This document shows, piece by piece, positions 37,260 to 64,000 of a stretch of 64,000 nucleotides of DNA; position 1 is the stretch's first letter; each line of letters begins with the position of its first letter. The translations under genes were made by a program, and so were the position numbers. The notes below the pieces were generated by a model. The model ran no database searches. It was not told the DNA's origin and was given only the letters and a program-made list of their open reading frames with translations. The stretch covers positions 1 through 64,000 of the forward strand of contig JBBHKE010002299.1 of assembly GCA_037447655.1 (NCBI GenBank), given 5' to 3'. Source of the stretch: Zygnema cylindricum. Taxonomy: Eukaryota > Streptophyta > Zygnematophyceae > Zygnematales > Zygnemataceae.

Positions 37260-39278
37260 GTATGTATATGTATATATGTATATATGTATATAAATATACA
37301 TATACATATATATATACAAACATATATGTCTGTGTGTGTGTGTGTGTATAAAGATTGTGGTTCATGTATGAATTACATTATAAATAAATAATATACAGTC
37401 AAAAAATAATACAATTGACTTCAACAATTCTTGACAAGTCACTTGATTTTTTTTCATTATCCTTTTTTCACTCTCCGGCTGTGCTGTTGGGTTTTTTTTT
37501 ATTTTTTTCCCTTTCCGGAGACCTAGTCTCTTGCAGCAAAATAAATGAATTCCTTCTATTTTCCCCCTTTTCCCTTGTGCACTTCTTCTGCTTAACCTTG
37601 TAAAGGTAGCGAGTTTTTTTTTTTTTACTTTATTATTGTCTTTTTTTTTGCCCCAGCCTTGTATATTGTCTGAAACTTTTTTACGTTCATTTTTTTTTCT
37701 TTCAATTTTCCTTTTTTTTCGTTGTTATTATTATTTTATTTTATTTACTACACCTTTCCGGTAAACAGGGATTATAGTTTTACTTCATTCTTTTAATCTT
37801 TCTACTTTTTGCTGTAGCTTTACATGCCATCGATAACTTTTCTCAATTCTCTCTCCCCTCTCCCTCTCCCTCTCACTATCCCTCTCCATCTCTCTCTCCT
37901 TCCTCTCCCTCTCCCTCTCCTTCTCCCTCTCCCTCTCCCTCTCCCTCCTCTCACGCTCCCTCTCCCTCTCCTTCTCCCCCTCTCCCTCTCCCCTCCTCTC
38001 CCTCTCCCCTCCTCTCCCTCTCTCTCCCTCTCCCTCTCTCTTTCTCTTCAGCCTTGCAGACAACCCTCTACGCCAAACTATTACCGTCCAGGATATCCGT
38101 GACCTATGTAACAACACTGCTGTAGTTTTTAATGACCATGTGGCTGACTCCCTCTCCCTCTCCCTCTCCCTCTCCCTCTCCCTCTCCCTCTCCCACTCCC
38201 TCCCCCTCTCCCTCTCCCTCTCCCTCTCCTCTTCCTCCCTCTCCCTCTTCCTCTCTCTCTCTCTTCAGCCTTGCAAACAACCCTCTATGCGAAAATACAA
38301 CCGACCAGAATATTCTTAGCCAGTGTAACAACACTGTGGGAGTTTTTGATAACTATGACGCTTCCCCGGTTTGCGTGGTAAATTGTATTAAGGACAACGC
38401 ACCGAGTCCATATTTATATTATAAAAACAATCAGTTTTGTAATTGTTCAGGATATCTCAACGTTACGATCACTGTTGATGATCTTTTATTGGCTTATATT
38501 TCTAAAAGAGGAATGAATAGTACGAGGGCGACAGTTGCCCGGGAAATTGGCGTAAACGAGGAGCAGGTAGAATTTTGTTGAATTAGTTTTTTTTTTTTTT
38601 TTTTTTGTATAATTAGACTGCGTTAAAACTTAATTGAAAGAGAATTTTGTTTTTTTAAATCTGTTTTCCTTTCCTTTCACATAAGTTCCATTTTTAATAC
38701 CCAAACAAAAAGGTGTTGATTTATGCATCTTCGCAAAACTATTGGCGGTGATCCGAATTTTCATTTGAGTACAAATTTTTCTGTACTTTTTGTGACCTTT
38801 TTCTTCCTTTTATTTGGGGATTTGACGTTGTCGTTTCTTTCTTTTGTTTATTTGGTTTTCATCTTCTGATTCTAATTGATGTTTATTGCTATTTTTGTTT
38901 TTTTTTTTTTATTTGCAGATTCTTGTGGCTTCCGGGCAATTTTCAGAGGATGGCGATACTTTAGATTTCATTTTACAAATTTTTAGTGAGGATGAAAATA
39001 CTCCCGGTCTTCAAATTAAAAGTATGCTCCAAAATTTGAAGTCAAAGGCAGTAGTAGTAGAAAGCCTCGGTAAAATCACTGAATGCAAAATCCTCGCTGA
39101 AGAGATTTATAGCCCTGGTGAGTCAACCTCTTTCACCGTTATCTGTATTTATTAAATTTTATTTCAGCCCTTTTTTTTTCAGGTTTTTTAAGGTTTTCTG
39201 GAGTTTTTTGGGGTTTTTTGATGCTTTTTTGGTTTCCCTGTTTGAGCTGCAATATCAAATCTTTAGACTTTCAGCAGA

Positions 39279-48219: not shown

Positions 48220-49145
48220 GCCTTTACCCTTCCTGGGCACCAGATATAGAGAAGAGTCTTGGAATGCCCCGGTTGTAGCTTCCGAGATTAGAGAATTTCT
48301 TCCACTTCATTCTCATCACGAGTACCGTGAACTGGCAGCAGGGACGTATGTCGGAGGTGATTTGGAAAAACCGAATCGGGGTCACGAAACTAAAAGGTTT
48401 GAGGAATGTCAAGTTTGTAGGCAACGTCCTTCAACTTTGAAAAGATAGTGAATGGCAGAGTAAACATCGGTGCCAACTTACGAGAAAGGGCACTTCGTAG
48501 AGATAGGTTTGTCATCCGCAGCCAAACTTTGTTTCCGACTTTAAAGACAACGTCCCTTTGATGTGCATCAGCTTCCATCTTTTGACCATCCTTCACATGT
48601 TGGTGGGCCTTTGCCGCTCTATCGAGGTTAATGTGAAGTGTTCGTATAAAGTCCAATGCAGTGGGAGTGTTAGAGCTGGCGGTCAACTAATTTTGAGGAA
48701 GAATGGGTTGCCTGCCGTTTAGAGCAAAGGGGGTAGCATTCATTGAAGAACGAATCGCCCTGTTGTACGCCACCTCAAGCGCCATCAAATGGTCAACCAA
48801 ATCTGTTTGCTGTGCCGACACTTAAGCTCGTAGTGCATCCTCTAATGTCCTATTTATTCGTTCAGTCTGTCCAATTGGTTTGAGGATGATACACTGTGGA
48901 CATAGCCAACTGCGTCCCACATAGCTTGAACAAAATTTTCCTGAAGTGGCTGACAAATTTCCGATCAGGATCGCTAACAATATTTTCCGGAAGTCTATGG
49001 TGCCAAAATATTTCTCTGAAGAATAGTTCTGCAACATTTCGAGCCGTTACAGTCAATTTTGTAGGTAAGAAGTGTGTCATTTTTGAAAGATATGTTGATT
49101 TGAGGCAACCGGTGACCCAAAGGAAGGAGAAGAAAAACCATCAGT
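48220..49145 (-). pseudogene. Ty3/gypsy integrase C-terminal half and chromodomain remnant (copy B)
   Basis: Minus-strand frames encode MTHFLPTKLTVTARNVAELF, FWHHRLPENIVSDPDRKFVS (second catalytic Asp region) and MSTVYHPQTNWTD, then the GPY/F-type domain (NKVWLRMTNLSLRSALSRKL) and a frameshifted chromodomain near 48250-48340. The parts lie in several frames. The Glu-containing block is mutated. The upstream part of the element is cut at 49145 by a copia LTR. Confidence 0.8.
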
Positions 49146-49908
49146 TGCCATAATATTTAGATTACAAAAGAGGAAACTCTCACGAAGACCACAAAAAGAC
49201 CGACTTCACAATGAAGCCCCAAGCAAACCAGACACACACTAGGTGTGCAAATTTTCCACAATATAAAAAGTATAACAAGGAAACAGCACGCAGAATTTCA
49301 CAAGGTTGTGCCAAAAGATCAAAATGATCTTGCAATTCAAAAATGCACAAAAACTGCTTCGCAGTTTTTCCGTACAATTCATGCTTCCTCTAAAATATTA
49401 TAAGTCCTACATATACCAAGTGAACCTACATCTGATCTACACCGTACCACAATTACCGTGGTCTTCCGGTACACTTAAACATTAATCAAAATAAACATCG
49501 CCGTCTACCGTACAAGTATTTACATCAATCCTTAACCCTAGCCGCCACTAAAGTACGCAGTCAAAGTTCGTCTGCTAAAATGACGGCTCAATCAATATTT
49601 CTCTTCCAAAAATGACGGCGAACTCCGTCCGCCGTCGGCGCATTCATTCATCACCGAAGATGAACCTCCACGTGTAAATTTGGTCCCTCAAGTAAATCTG
49701 TAGTTTGTCAACCAACTCAACCAAGCTTGACTTCCCCACGGACCAACACGTATACATGGAGTGTACCGACTCTATGAACTTCTTTGGAGTTACATACCAC
49801 ACCAAATCTTATCAATGTCGACTCATTCTGGACATAAAACTAACTAAGTCTATAATCTCTTTCTCACACACGAGATAAAAAGAGGACTAATGTTTTCCAA
49901 AACCAACA
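49146..49908 (-). mobile_element. Ty1/copia 3' LTR (763 bp)
   Basis: On the minus strand it starts TGTTGGTTTTGG directly after the purine-rich AGGGGAG and ends ATTATGGCA, that is TG...CA ends. It directly abuts integrase sequence of chromovirus copy B at 49145, showing copia inserted into or recombined with that element. Confidence 0.7.
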
Positions 49909-50710
49909 CTCCCCTAAACCTTTAGACTCTCTCAACCACTAAGTCCACATGCCTCTCTACAAAATTTTAACTTAGGTGCAGGTAAAGGCTTAGTCATCAA
50001 ATCTGCTACCATCATCTCATCGGGCAAATAAGTGAGTTTTCAAATTGTGTTCACCACCTTCTCACTTACAAAATTCAACTTGATATCAATGTGCTTACTT
50101 TTCAAGTGGTGACTTCGGTTAGATGCAATCGCTATAGCTGCGTGGTTGTCACACCACACTATTTGAGGCCCAAATTGCATAAAATGAAGTTCTTAAAGCA
50201 GAGACTTTACCCAAAGTAACTCGTTGACACATGAGTTGGCTGCCATGTATTTAGCCTCCATTGTAGTTTGGGCTGTGACTTTTTGAAGCTTGCTGCTCCA
50301 GTAACATGTTCACTTCCGATCTTGAGAATGAATCCGGTATTGGAGCGGCGGCTTGGCATGTCTTTGTAGCTCGCATTGCTCCAATTCTGAATCTTGACCT
50401 TTTCTCCACCGAGAGCAAGTCGTAGATTCTGTGTCCCTACAAGATACTGAAGCACCCTCTTTGCTGTTTTCCAATCGAATCTTCTTGGATTGTGTAAACT
50501 CCGGCTTAGAGCGCCAACTGCTGCCGCAATATCCGAGCTTGTGCACTCTATGGAGTAGATTAGACTGCCGACAATCTGACGATATGGAATGGCAGCCATA
50601 GAATTTTCTCCCGTGATTCCAAGGTGTCATCAAAAATGACTCCTCCCTCGGTCTCCATGCCTTCCACCTTTTGCTTCTATTCCATGGGAGTGGCAATTTA
50701 TCATGCACGA
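49909..50710 (-). pseudogene. Ty1/copia RT C-terminus and RNase H remnant
   Basis: Minus-strand frame 50599-50207 encodes IPYRQIVGSLIYSIECTSSD, DWKTAKRVLQYLVGTQNLRL and NASYKDMPSRRSNTGFIL, the classic copia segment after RT (YRxxVGSLxYL, KRxLRYLxGT, YxDADWAxDxxxRRSTTG). The part down to 49960 holds a further RNase H piece with HLKSKHIDIKLNF and ADLMTKP-like words in broken frames. The 5' part of pol is absent beyond 50710. Not functional. Confidence 0.8.
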
Positions 50711-51374
50711 TTATTTATTGCCTATGGAGGATTTTCGACCCTATTACTACTTCGTTGGATGTGGTTTCGGACCAATTTTGGAGTAGGTCAATATTAAGCC
50801 GATAGTGCACCAAAAGCCATTTTTGAGAGACGATTATGAACACAAAGATTATTGTTTTGTTCTGTAATCCAAATCCCTATTGAAGTCTATAAAGAATAGC
50901 TAATAGAACTTTATTTCACTTAATTTGGATAATTAAGCTAGAAGATATGTGAGGTCAAAGTAGTGTTTTGGTGCATATTGTAGAAACTTTGACGTTCAAT
51001 ATCTTTTCAACGGCTAAGTTAAACATGCTGTATTTTAAATTGATACATATAACTTTTTAATACCTTTCTAATGAATGTTTGTTTGGATTGTTCAGATAGA
51101 AATTATTAGAGATATGACAGTTTCTGTAAACTGCATAATCTAGGTTAATTATTGACTTTTTGAAGTAATGATTGCTTTTGCCGGTTGGAAATTAGTACAG
51201 GCTGTCCAACCGACTTTTCATAAGTCAAAATTTCTGTCGTTTTCGGGAAATAAACATAGAATGAGTCCTGTAGTGTCAGATTTTTTTGCTAAGTATTAGT
51301 TCTAAGTACTTTAGGTTGTTCGAATTCAATATTGTCTTGGAAAATGAAGGCTCAAAACTGTCTCTCAGTTCTGT
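50711..51374. other. unassigned AT-rich DNA between copia remnant and gypsy LTR
   Basis: No coding domain or repeat was recognised. The 5' LTR of the DNMT element may begin slightly earlier than 51375, because sequence before that point cannot be compared with the 3' LTR. Confidence 0.4.
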
Positions 51375-51960
51375 CGCCTTCCAAAACCTGAACTTACCAG
51401 AAAAGAGCTATTTTGCCAGCCTCCCTTTTTCCATCTTTGGATCATGTTGGAGTTGCCTTCCAGTTAGTCAATTTGTGTCTTGTTTGGCAACAAGGATACT
51501 TGGGGCTTTCTGATTGCAATAGTCCTTGGGATTCTAAAAGAGGGAGTTGGACGGATCCCTTATTGGGAGGGATCCGTGGGATTACGGGACCTTTGGAGTT
51601 TGATCACGGGAGTTTTTCTGTAGCCTCAGTTTGCTCCTCTGGGTGGGTCAAAACCCTTATTAAGTTAACATTCGGGGACGCTTGAATGCTACTTATTTTG
51701 TGCTTAATTATTTGGAATATGTTTATGCATTGTGGTGAATGGCTTCTGTTTGAGTAGGGTAAGAGGCAATATTGTTAAGTCTGCAAAGATTGTTGTCATA
51801 ACATGCTGTCATAAATGTTATGGCAGTCTAAATTATTTCCATTTTGATTTGATTTGTTACTTCCCAGGATTAGGGTTATGGTTGACTTTCTTTTGTTTAA
51901 AGTTGTTAGCATAGCCCACTGAGCTTGATGATATTAAAGCTCGCAGTTAGACAAAACTGA
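51375..51960 (+). mobile_element. 5' LTR of DNMT-bearing Ty3/gypsy element (right end not fixed)
   Basis: 51376-51501 is about 96% identical (5 differences in 126 bp, no gaps) to 63875-64000, the last bases of the window. Pairing across 12.5 kb in the same direction shows the two LTRs of one element. The right end and the primer-binding site were not identified; a methionine-tRNA-type TGGTATCAGAGC is absent. The 96% identity suggests a fairly old insertion. Confidence 0.7.
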
Positions 51961-52096
51961 GAGACCGTGCATTGTTGTGTTTTATAAGGTGCACTTGTGT
52001 CTCTGATTTCAGTTTATTTTTATTTAAAAATGTAAAAAAAAAAATATAGATGGATGTTGGAATAAAAGGGGAGGTGGGGGGGCACCTCGTAAAGAC

Positions 52097-53889
52097 ATGT
52101 TTGGAACCCCGGAAATGGGTGAAACTAGCTCTTCCTCCCGGAGGGCTGGCCAAATTTCTGCAAATTCGGGGATGCCATCGGTGCCATCGGTTTCCCTTAC
52201 AGGTGGGGGACAAGACATTCCAAATCTCCCAAGTCCTCCCCCAATTTCTCCACTTCCGTCCACTCCTCCTATTAGGATGTCCACTGAAGATTTCCCCACT
52301 CTAGCCGAATCTATCGAGCGAAGACGAGCATCTTGGCCATTTCCACCAACTAGAAGGGCTTCACATTCTCCTTCTTCTTATTCGGCTGCTTCTACTCACT
52401 CTCCTATAATTGGACCAGCTACCCGCTCTAGGCAACCCCACCTTAAGTTCCTGGTTCCACCACCAGATTTACATGACACCGTTGGGAGGAACGAGCTTAG
52501 GGATTTGTATGGGCAACAATCACGTGATCACAAGGGTCCTAAAGATAGTCATAGAGGAGCTAGGTCGAGAGCAGATGTGTCAAAATCATGTAGGAGCCAG
52601 GGGAGGGAAAAACCAAAGATGTCTCCACTACCACATTCTGATTTTTTGTCTGCCGAATCCGTTACTTTGGGGAGCGGTTATAGAAGACAAAACCCGAGAG
52701 ATCTAACACCTAAGATGCCTATATTCGACTTAGGGGATCCCTCAACATTGAATTTTCCCACATCTTCATCACCTTCTCCCAATTTTGGCAAGGTTTCGTC
52801 GAAAGAAGTGATAATTGCTGATAATCTCTCACCCATGGGGGAGGGAGAAAATCAAGGGCAAAGAGGGGTAGTTTCGAAATTTTAGTTGTAGAAGATATAC
52901 AACCTAATTTACCGGTCCAGATTTCGGAGTTTCCTGAGGTAGAGGGAAAAACATAAACACTTAGAGAACCACTTTTTAGGGAAGGAGAGGAAGGGGACCG
53001 AGAGGATGCACCCGTGGTTGCACAACGAGATAGGAGTCTTTTCTCCAACAAATCGGCAGGTATTGGAGCTATAGTAGAGAAGGAGTAAGGCGTTGGTGGA
53101 ACAGGGCCGAGAGATGACTTAGTTCCAAATCCATCATTGGTATTTACTCCGACCAACAATCCAAAACTATACTCCATTCTTTTTCGATACAAGTTTACTA
53201 GAGCTCCTGATCCAGGGGAAGCACCTTTGGAAGAGATCCCTGACATAGATAAGATTCCAACATCTATTCCTTCTCGTTTCGAGCATCTTCTCCGAACTCC
53301 TTTTCTATTGATCTACTTTTCCCCCAATTATGCGTTAGGTGGGACACCAACGATTTGACTTAACTGGGATAATGTTTGCCATTCAGGCTAAATTGACCAT
53401 TGGGGTAGAGAGGGTTGTTCCAACGGAGTTAGGAAAGAGTGGGAAGGAAAAGGATGGGATTCGAGAGGTCAGGAAAATTAGAAGGGAAGTAGGGGAATCG
53501 TTAAGACCAACAACTGATCTATTGGGGGTTGGGAGTTTTCCAAGAAGAGACCACAAGGGATTATACAGACTCATGATACTCTTTCTGGATCTGATGCATT
53601 GGTACAGGAAAGGACGGGGACAAAAGCAACACCCATTTCATCACCAAATGGAACAGACAATCGGAGAGTTAGACTTCGACTAGATCCAGGGGTGTTTTTC
53701 AAGGAGAATTTTCAGAAAGTACGAGAAAATTTGGAAATTAGGTTGCAACAACTCTCACCCATACCTATAGCTATACTTGTTATCACTCCCCAGACAAGAA
53801 CAAACCTTTCTCCTTCCCCTCCTTCTCCCTCTAGCTCCTCCACCTCGTCTTCTACACCATTTTCACCCATTTCCCCTCTTCCTCCTTAA
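52097..53889 (+). pseudogene. Ty3/gypsy gag N-terminal region (DNMT element)
   Basis: A 262-codon frame (ATG 52097 to TAG 52885) encodes a disordered Ser/Pro/Arg-rich protein (STEDFPTLAESIERRRASWP, GPATRSRQPHLKFLVPPPDL) without a known domain. The inverted copy at 63309-63875 stays open past the point where this copy stops, showing a 2-bp insertion near 52880 here. Further frames continue in 53137-53358, 53339-53683 and 53599-53889. This is the leader/Gag N-terminal region by position. Confidence 0.6.
52690..53258 (+). repeat. left arm of ~570-bp inverted repeat
   Basis: The segment from CCCGAGAGATCTAACA to GACATAGATAAG is the reverse complement (with scattered differences) of 63309-63870. 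Arms are separated by about 10 kb. The product of the left arm is Gag-region protein on the + strand. Confidence 0.88.
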
Positions 53890-54239
53890 GGAAGTTTACC
53901 CCTCAACCCTACATTTAACTCTTTCCATTTCCCTCCTCCACCTAGTGATGATGATAACATTTACACCGGCAGGGTGATGGAGGTAACATTTTAGAAAAAT
54001 CAATTTCATCTCATTCCACTCCTTCATCACCATCCACCCCTTCTTCTCCTCCTCTAGAATCCTCGTCATTGGTCCTTGATTCTTACAGTCCTTCAGAGAC
54101 ACCCGATCCTCTTTCACTGATTAGGAGTTTTTGCAATCTTTAGGGAACCCTATTTCTCCTATTTTTGATACCACTTCTTCAGAAAACACAGGATTTCAAT
54201 TGCCGGTTGAAGACGATTTCTTCATGGGGGATAACTTGA

Positions 54240-55395
54240 GGTTATTTACAGGGGATGCATCAAGTATTACATTTTCTTTGTTTAAACTCTAATGGGAGTC
54301 TTTTTATGCCGCTGAAGTAAACAAGTACCGAGGAAGTGTGGTTCTGGCCGACTTAGAGCGAATGTTATTTCCGATGATGGTAGATAGATTGGTAGGAGGG
54401 GCTTTGTCACATTATATGGAGAGGAAGACTAGCTTGAATCCTCCAACTATCAAGATTTGGGATTCGACTTTAGACAGGTCCCATGTTACTGCGGTGGCTG
54501 ATCTCGAGGCAACCATCCGTCAGCCTATTTCAGCCACGTACACATTTGGTGATAAGTTACGTGATGAGATATTAGCTTAATCCCAGATGAATAGATCTGA
54601 GTATGCCGCTATTGCTGCTACGAGGATGGAGGCGAATTCCCAACCTTGTACCACATTACTAGGTATATGGGAGACTCAGTATACAAAGCGAAATGAGTCT
54701 TCTATGAGAGAGTTTCATGAATTTAAACGGAAGCCTGATGAAACTCCTCTCACTATATAGAACCGCCTTGCTAACCTTTGTGTTCGAATCAGCAAGATAT
54801 TAAAAATCTGTTGATCATTGCTAAGTTTGAACACGCGTTGTCGAAATCCCTTGACTTGAAGACGACCCGAAATTTAGAAAAATGGACAGCTCACAAAGCT
54901 CTTAATGCTCTTCCTATCACTGATTTTGATCTTGGTACCGCTGCTCAAAAAAACCATGAACACTTTGCAAATCGGGAAGCTCAAGAGAGGACCATGACAG
55001 GAAAAGTTTATAAAGAGGAAGCATTTTTTGGATCGAACACTCCTTTTGTCACCAACGCTGAATTGAATGCTGCCATATCAAGAGCAATGAAAGGGAAGGG
55101 AGTAGCAGAGCGGAATCTGCAAGCTCATGGAGCGGATAGACAGATCCTATTCTCATACAACAATTGTGGAGAGGTTAGACATGGTTGGCAAAAATGTCCG
55201 AGACCTTTATCAGTTGAGTTTGCAGCAAAGAGGGCAAAGATTGATGCCAAACAAGATGCTCGGAATGTGGCATCTGGAGCTGGTGATCAGAGAAAAGGGA
55301 AAGATGGTGGAGGTCGGGACAACAAGAAAGGGGGTGACACCTCAGATGCACAACAGGTGGAATTTCAGATAATTCGTCAAATTAGGCTTCCTTAG
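54240..55395 (+). pseudogene. Ty3/gypsy Gag core and first zinc knuckle (DNMT element)
   Basis: The first frame (54240-54770) carries a retrotransposon Gag fold (WESFYAAEVNKYRGSVVLAD, LGIWETQYTKRNESSMREFH, then NRLANLCVRI) with a TAA at 54578-54580 and a TAG near 54761. A frameshift near 54775 leads to the main frame 54778-55395 (ITDFDLGTAAQKNHEHFANR, ELNAAISRAMKGKGVAERN). NNCGEVRHGWQKCP at about 55157-55200 is a CCHC knuckle whose first Cys is lost. Role: capsid and RNA binding. Ends at an in-frame TAG (55393-55395). Confidence 0.75.
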
Positions 55396-56163
55396 TTCGA
55401 CCATCGAAACATTCCTGATGATTTGATGGCAAAGTTCTCTACTCCTAACACGACATGCGAGGCGTGTGGATATCAGAGCCATACGGCGGCTCAATGTTTT
55501 CGAAAACACCGAATTTTGAAAGAATTGTTTAAATATGTGAAAACTAATCCTGCTACCGAGAAAGCATTTATGAGTATTCCCACTTTTTGTCAAATTTATC
55601 TCCTTCGTGGGACATTTCAACCCGAGGGGGAGAGGAACGAGCCCGATCCGGTTTGGGGGGCACAATTCGGAAATCCAACACCTTTTGAGACGAAATTACA
55701 GAAAGAGTTGTTGGAAGTCAAACACAAACTTGATTCATTGATGAGAGAGAACGCAAGCAAGGGTGCTTCTTCTTCAAAGTCGGCCAGGAAATTAGAGAAA
55801 GAGGCACGGTTGGCTTACCTAACTCAGCAAATGGCAGCTTTTCCGACGGAAGATTCATATTCACATGATGATCCAGAAGGATGGGAGAGTTCATACCACT
55901 CCCGCATGAGTGGATTGTTTGTAGGTGATCCGATTTTGTTTAATGTTGAAATTGGAGAGAGTAGAAGGCAATTACGAAAAATCACTAAAGATCAAAGGAA
56001 AGACAAGTTACAAGCAAGGACCAGTGATCATGAGAGGAAAGGGCAATCGGACATTCTCTCTTTTACCCCTCGGCAAGTCTTTTTGAAGACGAAAGTTGGT
56101 TTAGGGGTTAAAGCTGATTCTCCACCACCACCTCCACCAAAGGTAACCACTTATAATGATTGA
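55396..56163 (+). CDS. Gag-Pol linker with intact CCHC zinc knuckle (DNMT element)
   Basis: Same frame as the previous block. CEACGYQSHTAAQC is a perfect Cx2Cx4Hx4C knuckle (55456-55497), the RNA-binding signature of retroviral-type nucleocapsid. It is followed by a charged segment with coiled-coil character (KLQKELLEVKHKLDSLMREN) and a Pro-rich tail (SPPPPPPKVTT). Ends at TGA 56161-56163. The element therefore had two tandem zinc knuckles, the first now damaged. Confidence 0.7.
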   Translation, partial: FDHRNIPDDLMAKFSTPNTTCEACGYQSHTAAQCFRKHRILKELFKYVKTNPATEKAFMSIPTFCQIYLLRGTFQPEGERNEPDPVWGAQFGNPTPFETKLQKELLEVKHKLDSLMRENASKGASSSKSARKLEKEARLAYLTQQMAAFPTEDSYSHDDPEGWESSYHSRMSGLFVGDPILFNVEIGESRRQLRKITKDQRKDKLQARTSDHERKGQSDILSFTPRQVFLKTKVGLGVKADSPPPPPPKVTTYND

Positions 56164-56961
56164 ACCGCTGATTCCTCCTCACCAGAGACCACTGAAGACA
56201 AACCGGACGACTCTTTCACTCCTCTCACCACGCGGGTGGATTCTCATTCTACTTCGACATCAGCTCCACCCATCCCACCTTCTCGGCCTTCCGCCATGTT
56301 AGTGGATCTTCTCATCCCTCACTCTATAGAGTTAGTTCGCACTTTGGCTAACTCCCATCAAATTTCGGATGAAGAAATCATTTCGGCATTAAGATCTAAG
56401 ATCACCAGCAGGGTGACATCGACAGATGCTTTTGGAGCACCCATTTCATCTTTCGATTCCAGTTTTGGTAGCTCGGCGAAGGTTCCAATTACGGATAGGG
56501 ATTACTCTTCTTTGGCTGTTACATATATTGGTAACTCTTTCGGACACTTTAAGATTAATGGTTTCGGTGGTTTCCTCCAAACTGTGGTGGATACTGGGGC
56601 CCTTCCTAACCTTATCTCTACTAGTGCTTTGGAGAAATTGCCACCCAATTGTAGGCCAAAAGTATTTTACACTAAGGTGTGCCTAAGCACGGTTAGTAGT
56701 GGTAATCAACCAGTTTTTACTATAATGAAGGGTATGGATATCGAATTTGGAGATGATGCAGGTCAAAAGATTTCTATTCGTCTCCCTTTTTTTATGGTGG
56801 AGGGCAATCAGTTTGAAATTTTATTAGAAACCCATACATGGTCACTATTGGGAGCCATTGTAGATTTTTGGAGCGAGCAAATTTGCATTCAGGATTTGTC
56901 AACTTCACTCACTTGCCGTGTTTTTGTCCCTCTCACTTTGTGGGGACGTCATCATTCTTAG
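56164..56961 (+). CDS. retropepsin-type aspartic protease (DNMT element)
   Basis: Same frame as the preceding block. After a Ser/Thr/Pro-rich linker, VTYIGNSFGHFKINGFGGFL leads into VVDTGALPNLIS, the catalytic Asp-Thr-Gly of retropepsins (about 56587-56622), and then a beta-rich domain (GMDIEFGDDAGQKISIRLPF, EILLETHTWSLLGAIVDF). It would cleave the polyprotein. Ends at TAG 56959-56961. There is a further in-frame TAG at 57073-57075 before the methyltransferase. Confidence 0.75.
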   Translation, partial: TADSSSPETTEDKPDDSFTPLTTRVDSHSTSTSAPPIPPSRPSAMLVDLLIPHSIELVRTLANSHQISDEEIISALRSKITSRVTSTDAFGAPISSFDSSFGSSAKVPITDRDYSSLAVTYIGNSFGHFKINGFGGFLQTVVDTGALPNLISTSALEKLPPNCRPKVFYTKVCLSTVSSGNQPVFTIMKGMDIEFGDDAGQKISIRLPFFMVEGNQFEILLETHTWSLLGAIVDFWSEQICIQDLSTSLTCRVFVPLTLWGRHHS

Positions 56962-57120
56962 GAAGCGGCGGCAGGCTGCTACCCGGTCTACACTAACAAT
57001 GCTTCCTCAATTCATTCTTCTAAATTTTCCATTGAATCGGAGGATGAATCCACCGACATTGTCCCCCTTATATAGCAATTCCCGATCTCCGCTGAGTGGG
57101 AGGAATCCCACAAATGGAGA

Positions 57121-58479
57121 TTGGAGGTAACGGCTTCTTTGAGACGAGGTCACCAAAAAGTGTTAAATGTTTTGATAGATGAGAAGACATTACCATGTTC
57201 GAAAAATGTATCCAAAAGAAGAATCGAATTTCGACATTTTGTTCAGGGGCAGATTTTGACGCCACTTTCTCGAGAGGTGGTTTATTTGACACCAGAGCCG
57301 ACAGGGTTAACGGTAGTCTCATTATTTTCTGGCATTAGTACAGATTTAGAAGCTATATTGATGAACGGCCACCAGATTAGAAGTTATTGGGCCGTGGAAA
57401 TTTCATCTTCAGCTCGGGCAACGAGTGAATTTCGATTGTTAGAGCTTCACCGATTGTACCCTCTCCAATTACCTGTATTTGCTATTTCACAATCTCATCA
57501 TCGACTCCCACAAAATATTGACTTAATTACTTCACAAGATATGCGAGATTTGGGGGGGGTAGATTTAGTGATAGCTGGTTGGCCTTGTCAAGGATATTCT
57601 CAGGTAGGGAAAGGAAGGGGAAATAGTGACACTCGAAGTCGTTTATTCTATCAGATGGTTTTTATCCTCAACCTTTTGCAACTACATCACCATAAGCCGT
57701 TGGGATACTTGTTGGAAAATGTCTTCCCTGATGCGGATCAACGTAGTAAGGTAGTTACTGCTTGGCAGGAGACAATTCACTATTTGGGGGAACCTTTAGT
57801 ATTTGATGCAGCTCAGATGGGGTCTCGTGCTTTCCGTCTTCGCTCATATTGGACTAATCTTGCTCCTCTTCCACTATTAAAGGCCGCCGTGGGATTACAA
57901 AAGCGTCCGCCAAACCTCACCATCGATCAGATTTTAGACAAAGGCCGTACACCTACTCCTGTCACATCTACATCTCGACAACTATTTTTTGACTGCAACA
58001 AATCTGGTCAACCAAGAAACGCACTTCCCACTCTGGTTTCATTTCCTCGGAGCCATGCTTATCGTTTAGGTTCCCCTGGCATGATCTTTGACACTAATAC
58101 AAAGAAATGGGATGTGCCCAATATCAATGAACGAGAACGAGCCATGGGTTTTCGCACCAATGCTACTGCCGCTCCCAATCTCTCCCTTGACACTCGTTGC
58201 CGTTTAATTGGTCAAGCTATAGATTTACACCCATTTCAGTGGTTAGTTGGTCTTACACTATCTCATGGTCCTTTGCATTCTCACCAGCATCGCACTTCAT
58301 TTTTACAAGCTCCAGCTCGCATAGCTATGCAAGTCACACTAGCGCTTGGGGGGAGGAGAGATAGAAAAAATCATCAAAAGATCCAACAACAGAAAACCAA
58401 GGAGGGGGGACCAAAAGAACGAGAGAAGCAAGTGCATAAGGTAGAGGATGTTTTGTGGTTGTCTAGAAGGGTGTTATAG
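57121..58479 (+). CDS. retrotransposon-encoded C5-cytosine DNA methyltransferase, DNMT3-like
   Basis: An uninterrupted 453-codon frame, in the same frame as protease and RT, with the full motif order of C5-MTases. Motif I VVSLFSGIS (residues 65-73, AdoMet); Glu in AVEISSSARAT (93, motif II); Asp in LITSQDMRDL (140, motif III); motif IV GWPCQGYS with catalytic Cys156 (57586-57588); ENV 199-201 (motif VI); RLRSYWTNL (motif VIII); ALPTL (IX); ERERAMGF and RLIGQAID (X). GRGNSDTRSRLFYQ after motif IV, RSYWTN in VIII and the ERxxxGF...RLIG end look like DNMT3/DRM catalytic domains (inference). No ADD, PWWP or UBA domain is present. A Lys/Arg/Gly-rich tail (408-452) leads to RT. The first codon shown is TTG; the true product is probably part of the polyprotein. 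Ends at TAG 58477-58479. Retrotransposon-borne DNMTs are known from charophytes and Symbiodinium. Confidence 0.9.
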   Translation: MEVTASLRRGHQKVLNVLIDEKTLPCSKNVSKRRIEFRHFVQGQILTPLSREVVYLTPEPTGLTVVSLFSGISTDLEAILMNGHQIRSYWAVEISSSARATSEFRLLELHRLYPLQLPVFAISQSHHRLPQNIDLITSQDMRDLGGVDLVIAGWPCQGYSQVGKGRGNSDTRSRLFYQMVFILNLLQLHHHKPLGYLLENVFPDADQRSKVVTAWQETIHYLGEPLVFDAAQMGSRAFRLRSYWTNLAPLPLLKAAVGLQKRPPNLTIDQILDKGRTPTPVTSTSRQLFFDCNKSGQPRNALPTLVSFPRSHAYRLGSPGMIFDTNTKKWDVPNINERERAMGFRTNATAAPNLSLDTRCRLIGQAIDLHPFQWLVGLTLSHGPLHSHQHRTSFLQAPARIAMQVTLALGGRRDRKNHQKIQQQKTKEGGPKEREKQVHKVEDVLWLSRRVL

Positions 58480-59443
58480 GAAGGAGATAGAGCAAAGGGG
58501 TTGGGGGGGGACGAGTTTGATCTGTCCCGGTGGACGAGGCCACCGGAGAGTTTTGCAGCTATAGAACCGGGAAAGTTGGATTGGATTATTGGAGAACGGT
58601 TAGAGGAGAGCCAAAAGTCTAGAATTGTGGATCTATTGGGAAGGAATAGGGATGTGTTTTCGTGGGCTGATACAGATGTTGGGATTTACAAGGGCACACC
58701 ATTTAGGATTGACTTAGTGGACGAATCAACGACAGTTTGGCAAAAACAATATCCTTTGAGCCACTCGGAGAAAGAATTTGTGAAAGAGAAAGTCCAAAGT
58801 TTGGTTGATTCAGGATTAGTACAGGAAAGCACTGGTCTTCATGGGTTTGCCTCCCCAACTGTACTGCCTCCGAAGAAAGATTCTACAAGGAAGACTGTAG
58901 ACTTCCGAATGTGTGGAGACTATCGAATGTTAAATGCGGCCACTATATCGGACAAGTATCCTATGCCCACTCTTGAAGAAATATTTGATGCCTTGGTTGG
59001 AGCAAATATATATTCTACCTTGGATTTGAAGCACGGATTTCACCAAGTGCCTATGGAACCTAAGCATTGAGAGAGGAAAGCATTCTGGGCAGGTAAGAGA
59101 TTATACGAGTGGTTTAATATGCTTTTTGGATTGAAAAATGTACCCGCAAAGTTTCAACGAGTAATGGATGAAGCTTTACGAGGGATTGAATGTGCTCGGT
59201 GTTATATTGACGACGTGATCATTTTATCTAACAATTTGGAGGATCACCTCCTTCATTTACAAATGGTAATTGATGCTCTGAGAGCGGCACGCTTAAAGTG
59301 TCTTCCAGGTAAAGGTATATTTTGGGTAGACAAAATTTTGTATTTGGGACATGAGGTTACCACTAGGATTGTAGGTCCACATATGGTCAAAGTCGCCGCC
59401 TTAGATGCGTTGCCAGCTCCTACAAATGTATCTTCACCCCGCA
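58480..59443 (+). pseudogene. Ty3/gypsy reverse transcriptase (DNMT element)
   Basis: Same frame as the DNMT, starting right after its TAG. PFRIDLVDESTTVWQKQYPL and HGFASPTVLPPKKDSTRKTV are the start of the RT fingers, RMCGDYRMLN and PMPTLEEIFDALVGANIYST plus LDLKHGFHQVPME carry the first catalytic Asp, LYEWFNMLFGLKNVPAKFQR and CARCYIDDVIILS carry the YxDD motif (59200s), and FWVDKILYLGHEVT is the thumb start. One TGA (59068-59070) interrupts. The coding sequence is cut by an insertion after APTNVSS. Confidence 0.88.
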
Positions 59444-60999
59444 GATTTAGTTTCGTGCGTATGTGAAATTTGATGCACACACGACGTTTCGTGCGTATAT
59501 ATTTTACATGATGTACTGTGGAGTTTTGAACATTTTGCGGTTCGGCGGAATTAAATGTACGAGTAAAATTAATGGAGCAATTGAGTGGCGCGAAATGTGA
59601 GAGGAAATGGACGGCGGATTGCGAAGCGATCCGACGTGAGATAATCGACGAAGATAAAATGGTACGTCGCACGTAAAGTTCATAATGCGACACGTGGGAT
59701 ATATAAAAAGGACGCCGCCGGTACATAGAATCTTTTTTGGGACATGTGTACTTATTTTTGGCAGGCGCATTTATGACGAGGAACAAAAGTGCGGTACGGA
59801 CAATTTCGGATGGTTTGACGAGGTTTCGACAAGTGGATTTTTATGACCACGCGGCGCGACATCAAGGGTGCCGATTAAGAGCGACGGACGGCGGATATAG
59901 GCCGCCGAGATTTTTTATGTAGTGGTGACGCGAAATCGCGTCAATCACACGATATTTATTTTTGGACTTTCCGGATTGTTTGACAAAATTTGAGGAGTGT
60001 CGTTGAGTGACTCATCATGAGTCTGCATAAGATTTTGTGAGATTTTGTGTACCTGTAAATTTTTGGAAAGTACGGTTCGACAAGTGATTCGTGGTACACG
60101 TGGAAGGCGGACGGCGTCCGCCGATATTTTTAAGGGATCTCATTATCTTTAATGACGTATTATTAGGTGGACCGTACATATGCGATGTCGGTTCACTACG
60201 TGGATTTATCTACGAGTTCATAAGCGAGTTGTCGCGTATGACGCGTATTTTGCGGATGCGTCGGTATAAATATTTGAAACAACATTGTCTTGTCTTACGT
60301 GAATTAATATTTTAGTGTTGATTATTACAGTTTCTATTTAGGTGGTCAATTAGGGTTTCGGTATTTTAATCTGTGTGTATGCAGTGTCGTACTTGCAGAC
60401 AAGTGTACTCTTATGATTGGTCGACTCTCAGGTGTACATTTACAGTTATGATTATTTGTCGTAATAGGTTTTCATGATGTAATACTACTTAGTGGAAGTT
60501 ACGTTGGCTATTTTGACATGTAGCGATTCATTGACAGCTCACAAGTGTACATATATAGGAATGAGCTTTGTTAGGAATTAATCATCAATGCTTAGCATGA
60601 AAAGTAGGGACTGAAGATGTAGACTTTTAGGGTTGCCGATTAGGTCATGCACTTTGAATGATATAAAAATTATTTGATTATACTTTTTGTTTATGTGTGA
60701 TGCATTTGTCTGTTATTATTTATTTATGTTATTTTATATATGTTTGATATGCATTGTTTATGCATTAGTCCTAGGGTTTGTTTATGTCCATTATTCCATC
60801 AAACCTTAGATGTTGTCATAGGGTTTATTTATGTTGATTATTCCATGAAACCCTAGTTGTTGTTTATTGCATCAGTGTATGCATGTATGTTAAATGGAGG
60901 ATGTATTTCATATGATTTTTCGTCGACCTATTTTTGCTTAGTTTCTTGCATGATAGTTTGGGTGGCTTCTGCGGTCTATTTTAGACCAAAGAACAGCAG
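59444..60999. mobile_element. 1.56-kb unidentified insertion between RT and RNase H
   Basis: Flanked by an 18-bp direct repeat with two mismatches (ATGTATCTTCACCCCGCA, 59426-59443; ATGTTTCTTCACTCCGCA, 61000-61017), as expected of a target duplication. The first ~900 bp is GC-richer with a TATA-like box (GATATATAAAAAGGAC, about 59697); the last ~600 bp is AT-rich with a ~56-bp duplication (60770-60860, TAGGGTTTxTTTATGT... twice). No transposase or RT domain and no poly(A) end was seen. It could be a non-LTR or non-autonomous element. Confidence 0.6.
60770..60862. repeat. imperfect tandem duplication within the insertion
   Basis: TAGGGTTTGTTTATGTCCAT...ATTCCATCAAACCTTA and TAGGGTTTATTTATGTTGAT...ATTCCATGAAACCCTA follow each other. 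Each copy has AGGGTTT at one end and AAACCCT-like at the other, forming a weak hairpin. Confidence 0.7.
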
Positions 61000-61017
61000 A
61001 TGTTTCTTCACTCCGCA

Positions 61018-61560
61018 CATTTTGAAGGGTTAGCCAACTATTATAGACGATTTGTTCCAGAGTTTAGCAGCCGAACTCAGGCCCTCAATTTACTCTTAAG
61101 GAAAGATCAAGAGTGATAATGGAAGGAAGAACAAGAAGAGGCATTCCAATTTTTGAAGAATGCGCTAAAAGAAAGTCCGATTCTTCGTATGCTAGACCAT
61201 TCTCGACCATTTATTCTTTACGTTGATTGGAGTTGATTCGGATTAGGGGCCGTATCAGCTCAGCTTGATGATTCAGGAGCCGAATACGTGGTGGCCTATG
61301 CAAGCCGGAGCAACAAAAAGGCGGAGGCCTCTTATAGTAGCTATCATGGGGAGCTTCTGGTAGCTGTTTGGGTCATCAAACACTTCCGACCATATCTTTA
61401 TGGCGTTCATTTCACCCTTATCACCGATCACCAACCTTTGAAATGGATAATGGAGAATAGTAAGCTTACAGGGAAACTTGCTCGATGGGCTTAGATATTG
61501 CAAGAGTATGATTATGAGATAATTCACCGAGCCGATGAGACCTATGGTAATGCAGAAGGT
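61018..61560 (+). pseudogene. Ty3/gypsy RT connection and RNase H (DNMT element)
   Basis: Continues pol after the insertion: GLANYYRRFVPEFSSRTQAL, EEAFQFLKNALKESPILRML, then RNase H with FILYVDWS, GAEYVVAYASRSNKKAEASY, SSYHGELLVAVWVIKHFRPY and LITDHQPLKWIMENSKLTGK. The Asp, Glu and Asp of the RNase H active site are recognisable. Broken by TGA/TAA at 61114-61119, TGA at 61234-61236 and TAG at 61492-61494. Confidence 0.85.
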
Positions 61561-62700
61561 CTTAACAGAAACCCCGATCCCTCTTCTGTTGATGTTACAA
61601 GAGCAAGGTACGTTGAGGATCCTATTTTGGGGGTTGGAATCGTTATGGCAGCAACATTATTCTCTTTGCTTCGTAGAAAAAAGGGGGAACTTTTTGTATT
61701 AAGGGCAGAGGTGGAAGAGCAAGCCCCATTGTCAGCTGACACGGTTGACATTTTTGATGATTTAGACACCTTGAAATCCAATCAGCAAGGGTCAATTTTA
61801 CCACATTTAGAGGGGATCCAGAAAGCTAAAGTTCTACAGAGGATGTCAGCTTACACTTGGGATAAGGGGGTTCTCTTAATGGTTTGGCCGGATGGCGTCA
61901 AGAAGGTAGTTCCACCACCTGGTGATCAAGAAACGTTAGTCATCAACCTCCATGAGCAATGTGGTCATTTCGGTCAGAAGCATACCGTTTCTTTGGTTGC
62001 AGCATCTTATAGGTGGCATGGTATTCGAGCACAAGTGAATCGAGTTATTCAAGCATGCTTAACATGCGATCGAGTGAAAGTGGCATTTGACAAGAAAAGT
62101 GGTACCGAATTACATTCTCTTTCCATTCGGGGAATGTTTTATCGTTGGTCATTTGACTTGCTAGGGCCCCTTCCGACTAGTCGACGAGGAAATCGCTTCG
62201 TGCTTGTGATGATAGAGCATTTTTCTAAGTGGATTGAGCTCGTGGTGCTACCTCGGAAAGAGTCTAAGTTTGTGGGCGATGCCTTTTTACAAAGAGTGCT
62301 TGCTCAGTTTGGGGCCCCCGCGGAAGTTTTAACCGATCAGGGTTCCAAAGTTGCTGGGGATTTTTCGACTTTGATGGAGCAATGTTTGATTGATCACCGA
62401 ATTACTAGTAGAGATCATCCTCAAGCTGATGGGTTAGCCAAACGTTGTGTCCAAACAGTCAAGAGAGCACTCCGAAAATATGCGCTCGAGAAGGATGTGG
62501 GGGATTAGGATTGAAGGGTTCCTTAGATTGCTATGGGCTATAGGTTTAGTAGACAATCATCTCTTCACAGTCACAACCCTTAATTTATGATGTTTGGCAG
62601 GCATCTTATTCTCCCAGGATCTGCCTCGGCCCAAGCCACTGTCTTACCGGAGATGGATAGTAAAGGGACAGTAGAAAGACTAATTACCGCTCGAGCGTAG
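61561..62700 (+). pseudogene. Ty3/gypsy integrase (DNMT element)
   Basis: Frame 61498-62508 holds the HHCC zinc-binding domain (HEQCGHFGQKHT, then ACLTCDRVK) and the DDE core: WSFDLLGPLP (first Asp), VLTDQGSKVAGDFS (second Asp) and HPQADGLAKRCVQTVKRAL, where the expected catalytic Glu is Lys (AAA, 62440-62442). After TAG 62506-62508 the sequence degenerates, with recognisable MFGRHLILPGS and YVPGQRR words of the C-terminal region in broken frames. Integration activity of this copy is therefore lost. Confidence 0.85.
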
Positions 62701-63249: not shown

Positions 63250-63263
63250 AAGAAGGGGGGAAT
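63250..63263 (+). promoter_or_regulatory. candidate polypurine tract
   Basis: AAGAAGGGGGGAA follows the pol stop by about 35 bp. If it is the true tract, the 3' LTR would begin at TGATTCAGG (63263) and include the inverted repeat; the 5' copy does not show this sequence, so the relation is unresolved. Confidence 0.5.
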
Positions 63264-63308
63264 GATTCAGGAGTGAACCGGACAGTCCCAACATTTGGGA
63301 AGGGGTTG

Positions 63309-63870
63309 GTAACTTTTCTATGTCAAGGATCTCTTCCAAAGGTGCTTCCCTTGGATCAAGAGCTCTAACAAACCTGTTCCGAAAAAGAATGGAGTCTAGT
63401 TCCAGATTGTTGGTCGGAGTAAGTACAAATGATGGATTTGGAACTAAGTCATCTCTCGGCCCTGTTCCACCTACGCCTAACTCCTCCTCCAATATAGCTC
63501 CAATACATGCTGATTTGTTGGAGAAAAGACTGCAATCTCGCTATGCAACCATGGGTGCATCCTCTCGGTCCCCTTCCTCTCTTTCCCTAAAATGTGGTTC
63601 TCTAGGTGTTTTGTTTTTCCCTCTATCTCAAGAAACTCCGAAATCTGGACCGGTAAATTAGGTTGTATATCTTCTACAACTAATTTCGAAACTACCCCTC
63701 TTTGCTCTTGATTTTCTCCCTCCCCCATGGGTGAGAGATTATCAGCAATTATCCCGTCTTTCGACGAAACCCTGCCAAAATTGGGAGAAGGTGATGAAGA
63801 TGTGGGAAAATTCAATGTTGAGGGATCCCCTAGGTCCAATATAGGCCTCCTAGCTGTTAGATCTCTCGGG
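63309..63870 (-). repeat. right arm of inverted repeat: antisense copy of gag segment
   Basis: Reverse complement of 52690-53258. On the minus strand it reads DLGDPSTLNFPTSSSPSPNF and NLSPMGEGENQEQRGVVSKL and stays open for 120 codons, past the frameshift of the left arm. It lies between the pol stop and the start of LTR identity at 63875. Confidence 0.88.
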
Positions 63871-63873
63871 TTT

Positions 63874-64000
63874 TGCCTTCCAAAACCTTAACTTATCTGA
63901 AAAGAGCTATTTTGCCAGCCTCTCTTTTGCCATCTTTGGATCATGTTGGAGTTGCCTTCCAGTTAGTCAATTTGTGTCTTGTTTGGCAACAAGGATACTT
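63874..64000 (+). mobile_element. start of 3' LTR of DNMT element (cut by window end)
   Basis: TGCCTTCCAAAACC onward matches 51375-51501 with five substitutions. The rest of the LTR and the target duplication lie beyond the window. Confidence 0.75.

What the first reader, a model, noticed from the sequence alone, without database searches (positions are those of the whole stretch)
56164..59443. DNA methyltransferase inserted between protease and RT of a Ty3/gypsy element
The sequence shows an intact 453-codon C5-cytosine MTase with motifs I, IV (PCQ), VI (ENV), VIII, IX and X, in the same reading frame as an aspartic protease upstream and a reverse transcriptase downstream, inside one LTR pair. 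Established: retrotransposon-borne DNMTs were reported in charophytes and Symbiodinium dinoflagellates (de Mendoza and colleagues, 2018). Inference: a DNMT3-like domain made as part of the polyprotein could methylate the element's own cDNA or its chromosomal copies. The DNMT frame has no internal stop, while gag, RT, RNase H and integrase do.
Basis: partly seen in the sequence, partly recalled or inferred. Interest (0 to 1): 0.92.

Follow-up and report, generated by a model that had tools for sequence, protein, structure and literature searches.

The report
Methyltransferase-carrying retrotransposon with split repeats
The window holds a worn copy of a many-copy family of plant-type jumping elements, some of them recently active, that carry their own DNA-methylating enzyme and whose unusual end repeats suggest that they enter the genome from a circular DNA form.

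Summary
In detail: a Dnmt3-like C5 methyltransferase (MTase) ORF (57076-58479) lies between protease and RT of a decayed Ty3/gypsy-type element. It is no chance insertion. The genome (352.8 Mb) gave 123 MTase-domain matches (123 of 782 first-look candidates scored), in at least three deep families. One copy (C1344) keeps a single 2355-aa frame: gag-PR-MTase-RT-RNaseH-integrase-PHD. MTase and RT are both under purifying selection (median dN/dS 0.26 and 0.21, 74 of 120 pairs).

Two corrections. The MTase is not specially intact (27 stops/10,453 codons against 22/9,346 in RT, 24 loci with both). And the flanking repeats are no ordinary LTR pair: better-kept copies read A-coding-B-A-B, with TG...CA ends, 4-bp target duplications (3 of 3 copies read at both ends), a self-primer complement beside A, and a palindrome at the inner B/A joint. 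I infer integration from end-joined circles by a DDE integrase.

MTase-gypsy elements with DIRS-like repeats were reported from Klebsormidium in 2018. Seemingly new: the repeat anatomy, the PHD finger, and a sister clade (including annotated Haematococcus proteins) with the MTase between RNase H and integrase.

The parts
50699..51951 (+). Repeat A1, left end of the element (start TG changed in this copy)
   Evidence: Aligns to A of other copies from 50701; boundary at the TGTCATGC start seen in C895, C1515, C1344
51360..51373 (+). Putative self-primer (inferred RNA 5' end region)
   Evidence: Complement of the PBS: 11 nt exact, 13 of 14 here, 14 of 14 in copy L053 (read), 17 of 17 in fam3 C1344
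51952..51965 (+). Putative primer-binding site, directly after A1
52028..56160 (+). Broken gag region (several frames); CCHC-like knuckle near 55453-55500
   Evidence: ORFs; knuckle read by eye from the translation; no Pfam hit for the pieces scanned
56164..56961 (+). Protease region (D-T-G near 56590)
   Evidence: no Pfam hit on its own; the corresponding region of L001 has a sub-threshold Asp_protease_2 match
57076..58479 (+). C5-cytosine methyltransferase ORF, Dnmt3-like, 467 codons; core 57292-58341
58480..59440 (+). Reverse transcriptase, two frame pieces
   Evidence: PF00078 (first piece E 7.6e-6 but below the cut-off score, second piece above it)
59444..60999 (.). Insert that splits RT from RNase H (bounds approximate)
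   Evidence: bounds read by eye; content not studied
61000..61494 (+). End of RT/connection and RNase H
   Evidence: PF17917/PF17919 on 61237-61491; the part before 61237 read by eye
61495..62508 (+). Integrase (H2C2 and rve core)
   Evidence: PF17921, PF00665
63050..63208 (+). C-terminal PHD finger, one internal stop in this copy
   Evidence: sub-threshold in window (E 0.0038), translation; PF00628 E 1.5e-9 in C1344, 4.3e-10 in L001
63251..63262 (+). Polypurine tract
   Evidence: read
63263..63319 (+). Remnant of repeat B1
63320..63873 (-). Inverted piece of this element's own gag (matches 52676-53261), replacing the rest of B1 and the start of A2
63874..64000 (+). Repeat A2, cut; runs on to contig position 64437; no terminal B follows

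Best explanation
The window holds a decayed copy of an old, multi-copy retrotransposon family with a Ty3/gypsy-type Pol, of which at least one relative inserted recently. Its polyprotein carries a Dnmt3-like MTase between protease and RT and a PHD finger after the integrase. Life cycle (shown = anatomy; the rest inferred): the RNA starts inside A, and its 5' end folds back to prime at the site next to A. Reverse transcription then gives an ordinary linear B.A-coding-B.A DNA. The ends of this DNA are joined into a circle. The DDE integrase cuts the circle at the palindromic CA/GC/TG joint inside one repeat and inserts it with a 4-bp target duplication, leaving A-coding-B-A-B. The MTase, imported with the integrase complex, most likely methylates the double-stranded cDNA or the fresh insertion, which would mark it for silence and limit harm to the host. 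The PHD finger probably steers integration to chosen chromatin.
For: Element and family. Selection on MTase and RT. Family branching of MTase and RT trees agrees. Catalytic Cys and Glu in 98 of 98 filled rows. Repeats: B-A-B at the right end of four fam1 copies (C895, C1515, C1233, C1100). C895, C1515 and C1100 carry A alone at the other end at the expected distance; C1233 does too, but holds a second partial copy in between. C1344 shows the complete A-coding-B-A-B. Ends TG...CA with 4-bp duplications in 3 of 3 copies with both ends read (C895 AAGT, C1515 TAAG, C1344 TTGG). For C895 and C1515 (near-identical elements at different sites) the right flank was printed and the left end fetched afterwards. 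In C1344 the flanks, read on by eye, give a gypsy RNase H frame. GACAGCTGTC occurs 7 times in 306,544 held bases of loci (0.29 expected): six at the B/A joint and one in L001 near its polypurine tract. Self-primer: 17-nt exact complement in C1344 against 0 of 266 control windows at 11 nt or more; primer sequence found in 7 further fam1 loci, with at most two changes. A2|B2 joints vary.
Against: Three of five exact-pattern joints are identical, and two copies (C831, C889) share a resected joint by alignment, so the joints vary less than random end-joining might give. On C2012 an A-only match lies 2.4 kb on the wrong side of an A+B match, unexplained. Two further copies with a B/A joint (L051, L053) lack the exact palindrome. 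The repeats of fam2 were not read. Left ends were read in few copies (C895, C1515, C1344; also the window and L053). In the window the primer complement is 11 nt exact, and 2 of 362 control windows reach 11 or more, the longest 12; of two loci that cover the PBS, L053 pairs 14 of 14 and L018 is more diverged. No methylation, expression or enzyme data. In the 2018 yeast test the K. nitens element MTase showed no activity, which the authors call inconclusive (PMC5890265).
Confidence: 0.65

Rival explanations
1. The A-coding-B-A-B layout arises as in DIRS elements by another circular route (rolling or single-repeat circle copied through the inner B-A joint), not by end-joining of an LTR-type linear DNA.
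For: Same order of repeats as DIRS (arrangement given in PMC5890265); 3 of 5 joints identical; a resected joint shared by two copies.
Against: The element encodes a DDE integrase core and no tyrosine recombinase match was listed. It has 4-bp target duplications and TG...CA ends. The PBS lies next to the A end and the polypurine tract next to the B start, so standard reverse transcription gives B.A at both ends. Some joints hold extra or missing bases.
Confidence: 0.22
2. Ordinary LTR (B.A) elements, where the left B was lost and the extra right B is a nested or tandem copy.
For: The window copy alone, with no terminal B, would allow it; C1233 and L053 do hold nested or tandem pieces.
Against: In C895, C1515 and C1344 the 4-bp duplications abut the start of A and the end of terminal B; C1100 shows the same A / A+B asymmetry.
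Confidence: 0.04
3. The MTase is a passenger: a captured domain kept by chance and with no role in the element's cycle.
For: 14 of 30 loci have at least one MTase stop; two copies share a frame-broken MTase tract.
Against: Purifying selection in the same range as RT; an MTase in 91 of the 120 listed polyproteins (the query held the MTase, so the list is biased); catalytic Cys and Glu in 98 of 98 filled rows. The shared broken tract looks like conversion between copies (identity 99-100% over roughly 1 kb, 86-98% elsewhere).
Confidence: 0.1
4. The MTase acts on RNA or on host chromatin (counter-silencing or host epigenome change) and not on the element's own DNA.
For: The target is untested; a PHD finger lies in the same polyprotein. 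CG observed/expected in the fam1/fam2 stretches measured is 0.63-0.70 against 0.95 for window 4001-48000, which suggests past CG methylation of these copies, not by whom; the neighbouring copia stretch has 0.79.
Against: Nearest solved relatives are DNA enzymes DNMT3A/3B, well ahead of DNMT2.
Confidence: 0.2

Closest known systems
KnitGypsy-Dnmt3 of Klebsormidium nitens (de Mendoza et al. 2018, PMC5890265; parts 1-3 of 7 read plus a term search)
   Same: Dnmt3-type MTase in the Pol of a Gypsy element; repeats described as 'the same as that of a DIRS retrotransposon'; purifying selection on the MTase; a K. nitens polyprotein (P0176) has the same MTase-RT-RNase H-IN order
   Different: Another genome with several deep families. 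The paper's main text has no occurrence of 'PHD', 'circular' or 'chlorophyte'; in the parts I read I saw no account of duplications, self-primer or joint. P0176 shows no PHD hit.
SymbioDIRS-Dnmt3 of dinoflagellates (same paper)
   Same: Dnmt3 in Pol, A-coding-B-A-B repeats
   Different: DIRS class with tyrosine recombinase; the element here has a DDE integrase core
DNMT3A/DNMT3B catalytic domains
   Same: Best solved-structure relatives, unrearranged motif order, catalytic Cys and Glu
   Different: The part between motifs VIII and X aligns poorly to DNMT3A; motif IV columns read ECQ in 51 and PCQ in 33 of 99 retrotransposon rows; part of a polyprotein
Tf1/sushi-type self-primed LTR elements (recalled, no call)
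   Same: Complement of the primer-binding site inside the inferred transcribed repeat
   Different: Repeats are split; the MTase
Haematococcus lacustris (3 of 4 listed proteins) and environmental gypsy polyproteins, RT-RNase H-MTase-IN-PHD
   Same: Same MTase profile, PHD finger at the end
   Different: MTase sits between RNase H and integrase; separate RT clade

Membership tests
Ty3/gypsy (Metaviridae) Pol | Order protease, RT, RNase H, then DDE integrase | tested here: met
   (protease match below Pfam's cut-off)
Ty3/gypsy (Metaviridae) Pol | Identical LTRs at both ends of the inserted copy | tested here: not met
   Copies read at both ends are A-coding-B-A-B; hence 'gypsy-type Pol', not an ordinary LTR element
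Ty3/gypsy (Metaviridae) Pol | TG...CA ends with short target duplication | tested here: met
   4 bp in 3 of 3 copies
DIRS elements | Split direct repeats | tested here: met
DIRS elements | Tyrosine recombinase and no target duplication (the latter recalled) | tested here: not met
   rve integrase core, no PF00589 listed; 4-bp duplications
KnitGypsy-Dnmt3 | Dnmt3-type domain in Gypsy Pol with DIRS-like repeats | tested here: met
KnitGypsy-Dnmt3 | Common descent with the K. nitens element | tested here: inconclusive
   P0176 falls on the same (MTase-RT) side of the RT tree, but its own placement has support 71 and a long branch
DNMT3 family | Closer to DNMT3 than to DNMT1/CMT, DRM or DNMT2 | tested here: inconclusive
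   Profile ranking: DNMT3A/B 1.9e-20, DRM 1.3e-10, HhaI 2.6e-9, DNMT2 4.4e-9, no DNMT1 at 1e-3; no tree with cellular DNMT3 was made
DNMT3 family | De novo CG methylation | not testable with these tools
   needs an enzyme assay
Self-primed LTR elements | Primer-binding site complementary to the RNA 5' end | tested here: inconclusive
   Complement to a stretch inside A: 17/17 in C1344, 14/14 in L053, 13/14 in the window; that the RNA starts there is inferred

The most novel reading that the evidence does not exclude
A clade of retrotransposons found in both green lineages (streptophytes and, by annotated proteins, a chlorophyte) has made the two-repeat DNA circle, usually seen as a dead end in retroviruses (recalled), its normal integration substrate. 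A DDE integrase cuts a conserved palindromic joint inside the former LTR. The Dnmt3-like MTase and the PHD finger mark and steer that circle. The MTase was gained once, early, and then changed place in Pol once.
Probability: 0.38. Interest if true: 0.86.

Novelty: new variant of a known kind. Interest (0 to 1): 0.73.

Why it matters
Elements that carry the enzyme of their own silencing are a puzzle; the print I saw has them in dinoflagellates and in charophytes (Klebsormidium). Here the same MTase-bearing gypsy type appears in one more genome in large numbers, and database proteins place it in Closterium, in a chlorophyte's annotation and in many environmental sequences, with the MTase under selection in this genome. 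The repeat anatomy gives a concrete, testable route by which a gypsy-type integrase could use circular DNA, which would link the LTR and DIRS ways of moving. If the circle model holds, methylation before integration can be measured directly on the circles.

Tried and rejected
Rejected: a chance MTase insertion (an RT match lies downstream of the MTase in 24 of the 30 loci L010-L039; the other six show none within about 1.5 kb, two of them, L014 and L020, reaching the integrase end at once, so internally deleted). Special intactness of the MTase frame; a first count over unequal sets (46/12,924 against 22/9,346, p 0.11) was replaced by the matched one. A first idea that a copia element had cut the 5' LTR at 50701: the A start is the true left end. 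L018/L019 as a lineage spreading without MTase: the shared broken tract looks like conversion. A context signal for CG deamination between the window's A copies was weak (3 of 18 CG, 4 of 36 CHG, 16 of 183 CHH sites).

Led nowhere: viral contigs (26 pattern stretches, none confirmed); Rfam and tRNA scans of the window; MatK_N for naming the organism (no match in 1 genome, no control rang); structure prediction; published accounts of PHD-bearing or split-repeat gypsy (listings and abstract starts seen only). In one search the script's own window pairing count (3 of 17) used a misplaced register; one search gives 13 of 14.
Full report
What is in the window. The MTase ORF at 57076-58479 (467 codons stop to stop) matches PF00145 (E 9.7e-13) and sits between a protease region (56164-56961, no Pfam hit on its own) and RT (58480-59440); RNase H, integrase and a PHD finger (sub-threshold and with one stop here) follow after an insert. 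By sequence the nearest solved proteins are DNMT3A and DNMT3B; with a profile of nine relatives DNMT3A scores E 1.9e-20, plant DRM 1.3e-10, HhaI 2.6e-9, DNMT2 4.4e-9, and no DNMT1 reaches 1e-3. Protease, MTase and RT share a reading phase but are separated by stops at 56959, 57073 and 58477. The first ATG of the MTase ORF comes after motif I, so it can hardly be a free-standing gene.

It is a family. The window's assembly has 352.8 Mb in 2689 contigs. A PF00145 search scored 123 of 782 first-look candidates and all 123 passed the cut-off (exons of host MTases may be among them). A search with the window MTase gave 95 matches, 91 of 1871 candidates scored. The tool calls such counts lower bounds. 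Fourteen fetched loci, the window included, form fam1 (74-93% identity to the window's MTase over the matched part); the other loci of that search lie mostly near 45-54% (fam2); a third family (fam3) came from the Pfam search. Of the 30 loci L010-L039, 24 have an RT match downstream of the MTase; six do not within about 1.5 kb, two of these by internal deletion. In one fam3 copy (C1344, L058) a single frame of 2355 codons from ATG holds a CCHC knuckle, protease, MTase, RT, RNase H, integrase and PHD finger in that order; the CCHC and protease matches are below Pfam's cut-off. Uninterrupted copies thus exist.

Selection and age. In the 24 loci with both domains the MTase has 27 stops in 10,453 codons and RT 22 in 9,346 (Fisher p 0.78), so the MTase is not better kept than RT. 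But pairwise dN/dS (Nei-Gojobori) in fam2 is 0.26 (median) for the MTase and 0.21 for RT in 74 of 120 pairs; 45 pairs were saturated or near zero and one lacked codons. In fam1 (14 loci, 91 pairs) the MTase values range from 0.15 to 1.31, low between subfamilies (for example L011-L016 0.19) and often near 1 between very close copies. All 112 MTase comparisons between fam1 (7 loci used) and fam2 (16 loci) were saturated at silent sites. Trees of MTase (77 rows; rows with under 255 filled columns and four duplicate loci dropped) and RT (29 rows; two short rows dropped) both recover fam1, two fam2 groups and fam3. This fits one MTase carried along with RT since before these families split. The A1 and A2 repeats of C1344 are identical over 931 bases, a recent insertion; the window's are K2P 0.063 apart over 564 sites.

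The ends. In fam1 copies C895, C1515, C1233 and C1100 the right end reads B (about 215 bp), A (about 1.25 kb), B. Of 45 genome matches to A-end-plus-B, 19 run from A into B, 22 hold the A end alone and 4 are partial pieces (my count of the table). C895, C1515 and C1100 have A alone at the other end at the expected distance; C1233 does too but holds a second partial copy between; on C2012 the order is the reverse, 2.4 kb apart, which I cannot explain. C1344 shows the whole layout: A1 85514-86444, coding, B1 94737-94978, A2 94981-95911, B2 95912-96154. The element begins TGTCATG and ends GACA. Target duplications are TTGG in C1344, AAGT in C895 and TAAG in C1515: 3 of 3 copies with both ends read, C895 and C1515 being near-identical elements at different sites. 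For these two the right flank was printed first and the left end fetched later. In C1344 the flanks without the element read on, by eye, as a gypsy RNase H frame. At the inner joint B and A are separated by GC, making the palindrome GACAGCTGTC. It occurs 7 times in the 306,544 bases of loci held (some overlap), with 0.29 expected: six at this joint in own-genome copies and one in L001, a distant relative, near its polypurine tract. Two further copies with a B/A joint, L051 and L053, lack the exact palindrome; the window, which has lost the joint, has none. A polypurine tract lies just before B1 and, just after A1, a stretch complementary to part of A: 17 of 17 bases in C1344, where none of 266 control windows reaches 11, 14 of 14 in L053, 13 of 14 in the window. 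In the window 11 are consecutive, and 2 of 362 control windows reach 11 or more. L018, the other locus covering the site, is more diverged there.

What this implies (inference). With PBS next to the A end and the polypurine tract next to the B start, ordinary reverse transcription yields linear B.A-coding-B.A. The inserted form begins at A and ends with B, with TG...CA and duplications at those ends. The simplest path is joining of the linear ends (A|B) into a circle and cutting by the integrase at the CA-GC-TG joint of one repeat. The A2|B2 joints found are: one exact joint in three copies, one with three extra bases, one a base shorter (5 of 5 pattern matches, a pattern that excludes larger losses), one with a deletion (C1100), one with loss of about 150 bases of B (C889; C831 looks the same by alignment), and the fam3 joint. 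The extra bases in C895 could be PBS and polypurine-tract remnants. The repeated exact joint and the shared resected joint speak against fully random joining. In the window copy an inverted piece of its own gag (63320-63873) replaces part of B1 and A2, and its edge lies where A carries the self-primer; a template switch at similar sequence is likely.

Relatives. Protein searches found the MTase in Closterium, a Marchantia fragment, and many environmental sequences. L001, filed under a cyanobacterial metagenome bin, is a relative with two long open frames and a 127-nt end overlap; by its domains it is of eukaryotic type. A search with MTase-RT-RNase H of L058 gave 1023 matches, best 120 listed. 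Of those 120, 22 have the MTase before RT, 69 have it after RNase H (66 of these followed by the integrase, 3 cut), and 29 have no MTase hit. The first group holds K. nitens (1) and Closterium (3), the second three of the four listed proteins of the chlorophyte Haematococcus lacustris. In an RT tree of 99 rows with both domains (91 listed proteins, 7 own loci, L001) the two orders are separated by one branch (support 99). In the MTase tree two changes are needed, the odd row being P0242 with a very long branch; without it the separating branch has support 72. The catalytic Cys and Glu are present in 98 of 98 filled rows; motif IV columns read ECQ in 51 and PCQ in 33 of 99. The list is biased to MTase carriers because the query held the MTase. 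The Haematococcus records are genome annotations; contamination was not checked.

What is known. De Mendoza et al. 2018 (PMC5890265; I read parts 1-3 of 7 and passages from a term search) reported Dnmt3 in a Gypsy element of K. nitens, with a figure legend saying its repeats are arranged as in DIRS, and proposed self-methylation of the cDNA; the K. nitens domain gave no activity in yeast, which they call inconclusive. A 2025 paper (PMC12344493, passages only) mentions retrotransposon DNMT3 of streptophytes and dinoflagellates, citing the 2018 work. I found no print on the PHD finger, the duplications, the self-primer, the circle route or chlorophyte members in searches of the held open library; most subscription journals are missing from it, and I recall Chlamydomonas elements (TOC1, REM1) with odd repeats that could not be read here.

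Function of the MTase. Conservation and selection say that it matters to the element. CG observed/expected is 0.63-0.70 in the fam1 and fam2 stretches measured (0.89 in the young fam3 frame) against 0.95 in window 4001-48000 and 0.79 in the neighbouring copia stretch, so these copies have probably been CG-methylated, but the host also has its own DNMT1-type gene (two RFD matches). I think methylation of the element's own cDNA or fresh insertion most likely (about 0.45), with host-directed action or RNA as rivals. Nothing here tests it.

On re-checking I corrected the stop comparison (matched loci), the count of loci with MTase stops (14 of 30), the status of C1233 and C2012, the palindrome exceptions and the window primer pairing; confidence in the main reading was lowered from 0.68 to 0.65 and of the novel case from 0.40 to 0.38 for the last three.

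Noticed in passing
window 59444-60999: An insert of about 1.55 kb splits RT from RNase H; its nature was not studied.
   Followed up: no
window 63320-63873 against 52676-53261: Inverted copy of the element's own gag inside the 3' repeat, joined at the self-primer; the gag site resembles the primer-binding site.
   Followed up: partly
window 49093-50698: Minus-strand copia-like remnant ends just before the A1 start; similar stretches lie near other copies (L040, L042, L050, L015).
   Followed up: no
L018 and L019: Two fam1 copies are 99-100% identical over roughly 1 kb of a frame-broken MTase but 86-98% alike elsewhere, as if converted.
   Followed up: partly
L001 (CADCWO010000201.1): A retroelement of eukaryotic type filed in a cyanobacterial metagenome bin; 127-nt identical ends suggest a circular or repeat-collapsed contig.
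   Followed up: partly
P0018 (Closterium): MTase predicted in one protein with a copia-type gag (PF14223); could be a gene-model artefact or a second kind of host element.
   Followed up: no
L059/L060 (C1344 flanks): The fam3 copy with the uninterrupted frame sits inside the RNase H region of another gypsy element (read by eye).
   Followed up: no
G000 C2012:87199-90454: An A-only match lies 2.4 kb from an A+B match in the order opposite to the element's layout.
   Followed up: no
window 37800-38600: CT/AG-rich simple repeats beside a short ORF with a cysteine-rich, possibly exonic sequence; unresolved bases in an ORF near 42.5-42.9 kb.
   Followed up: no
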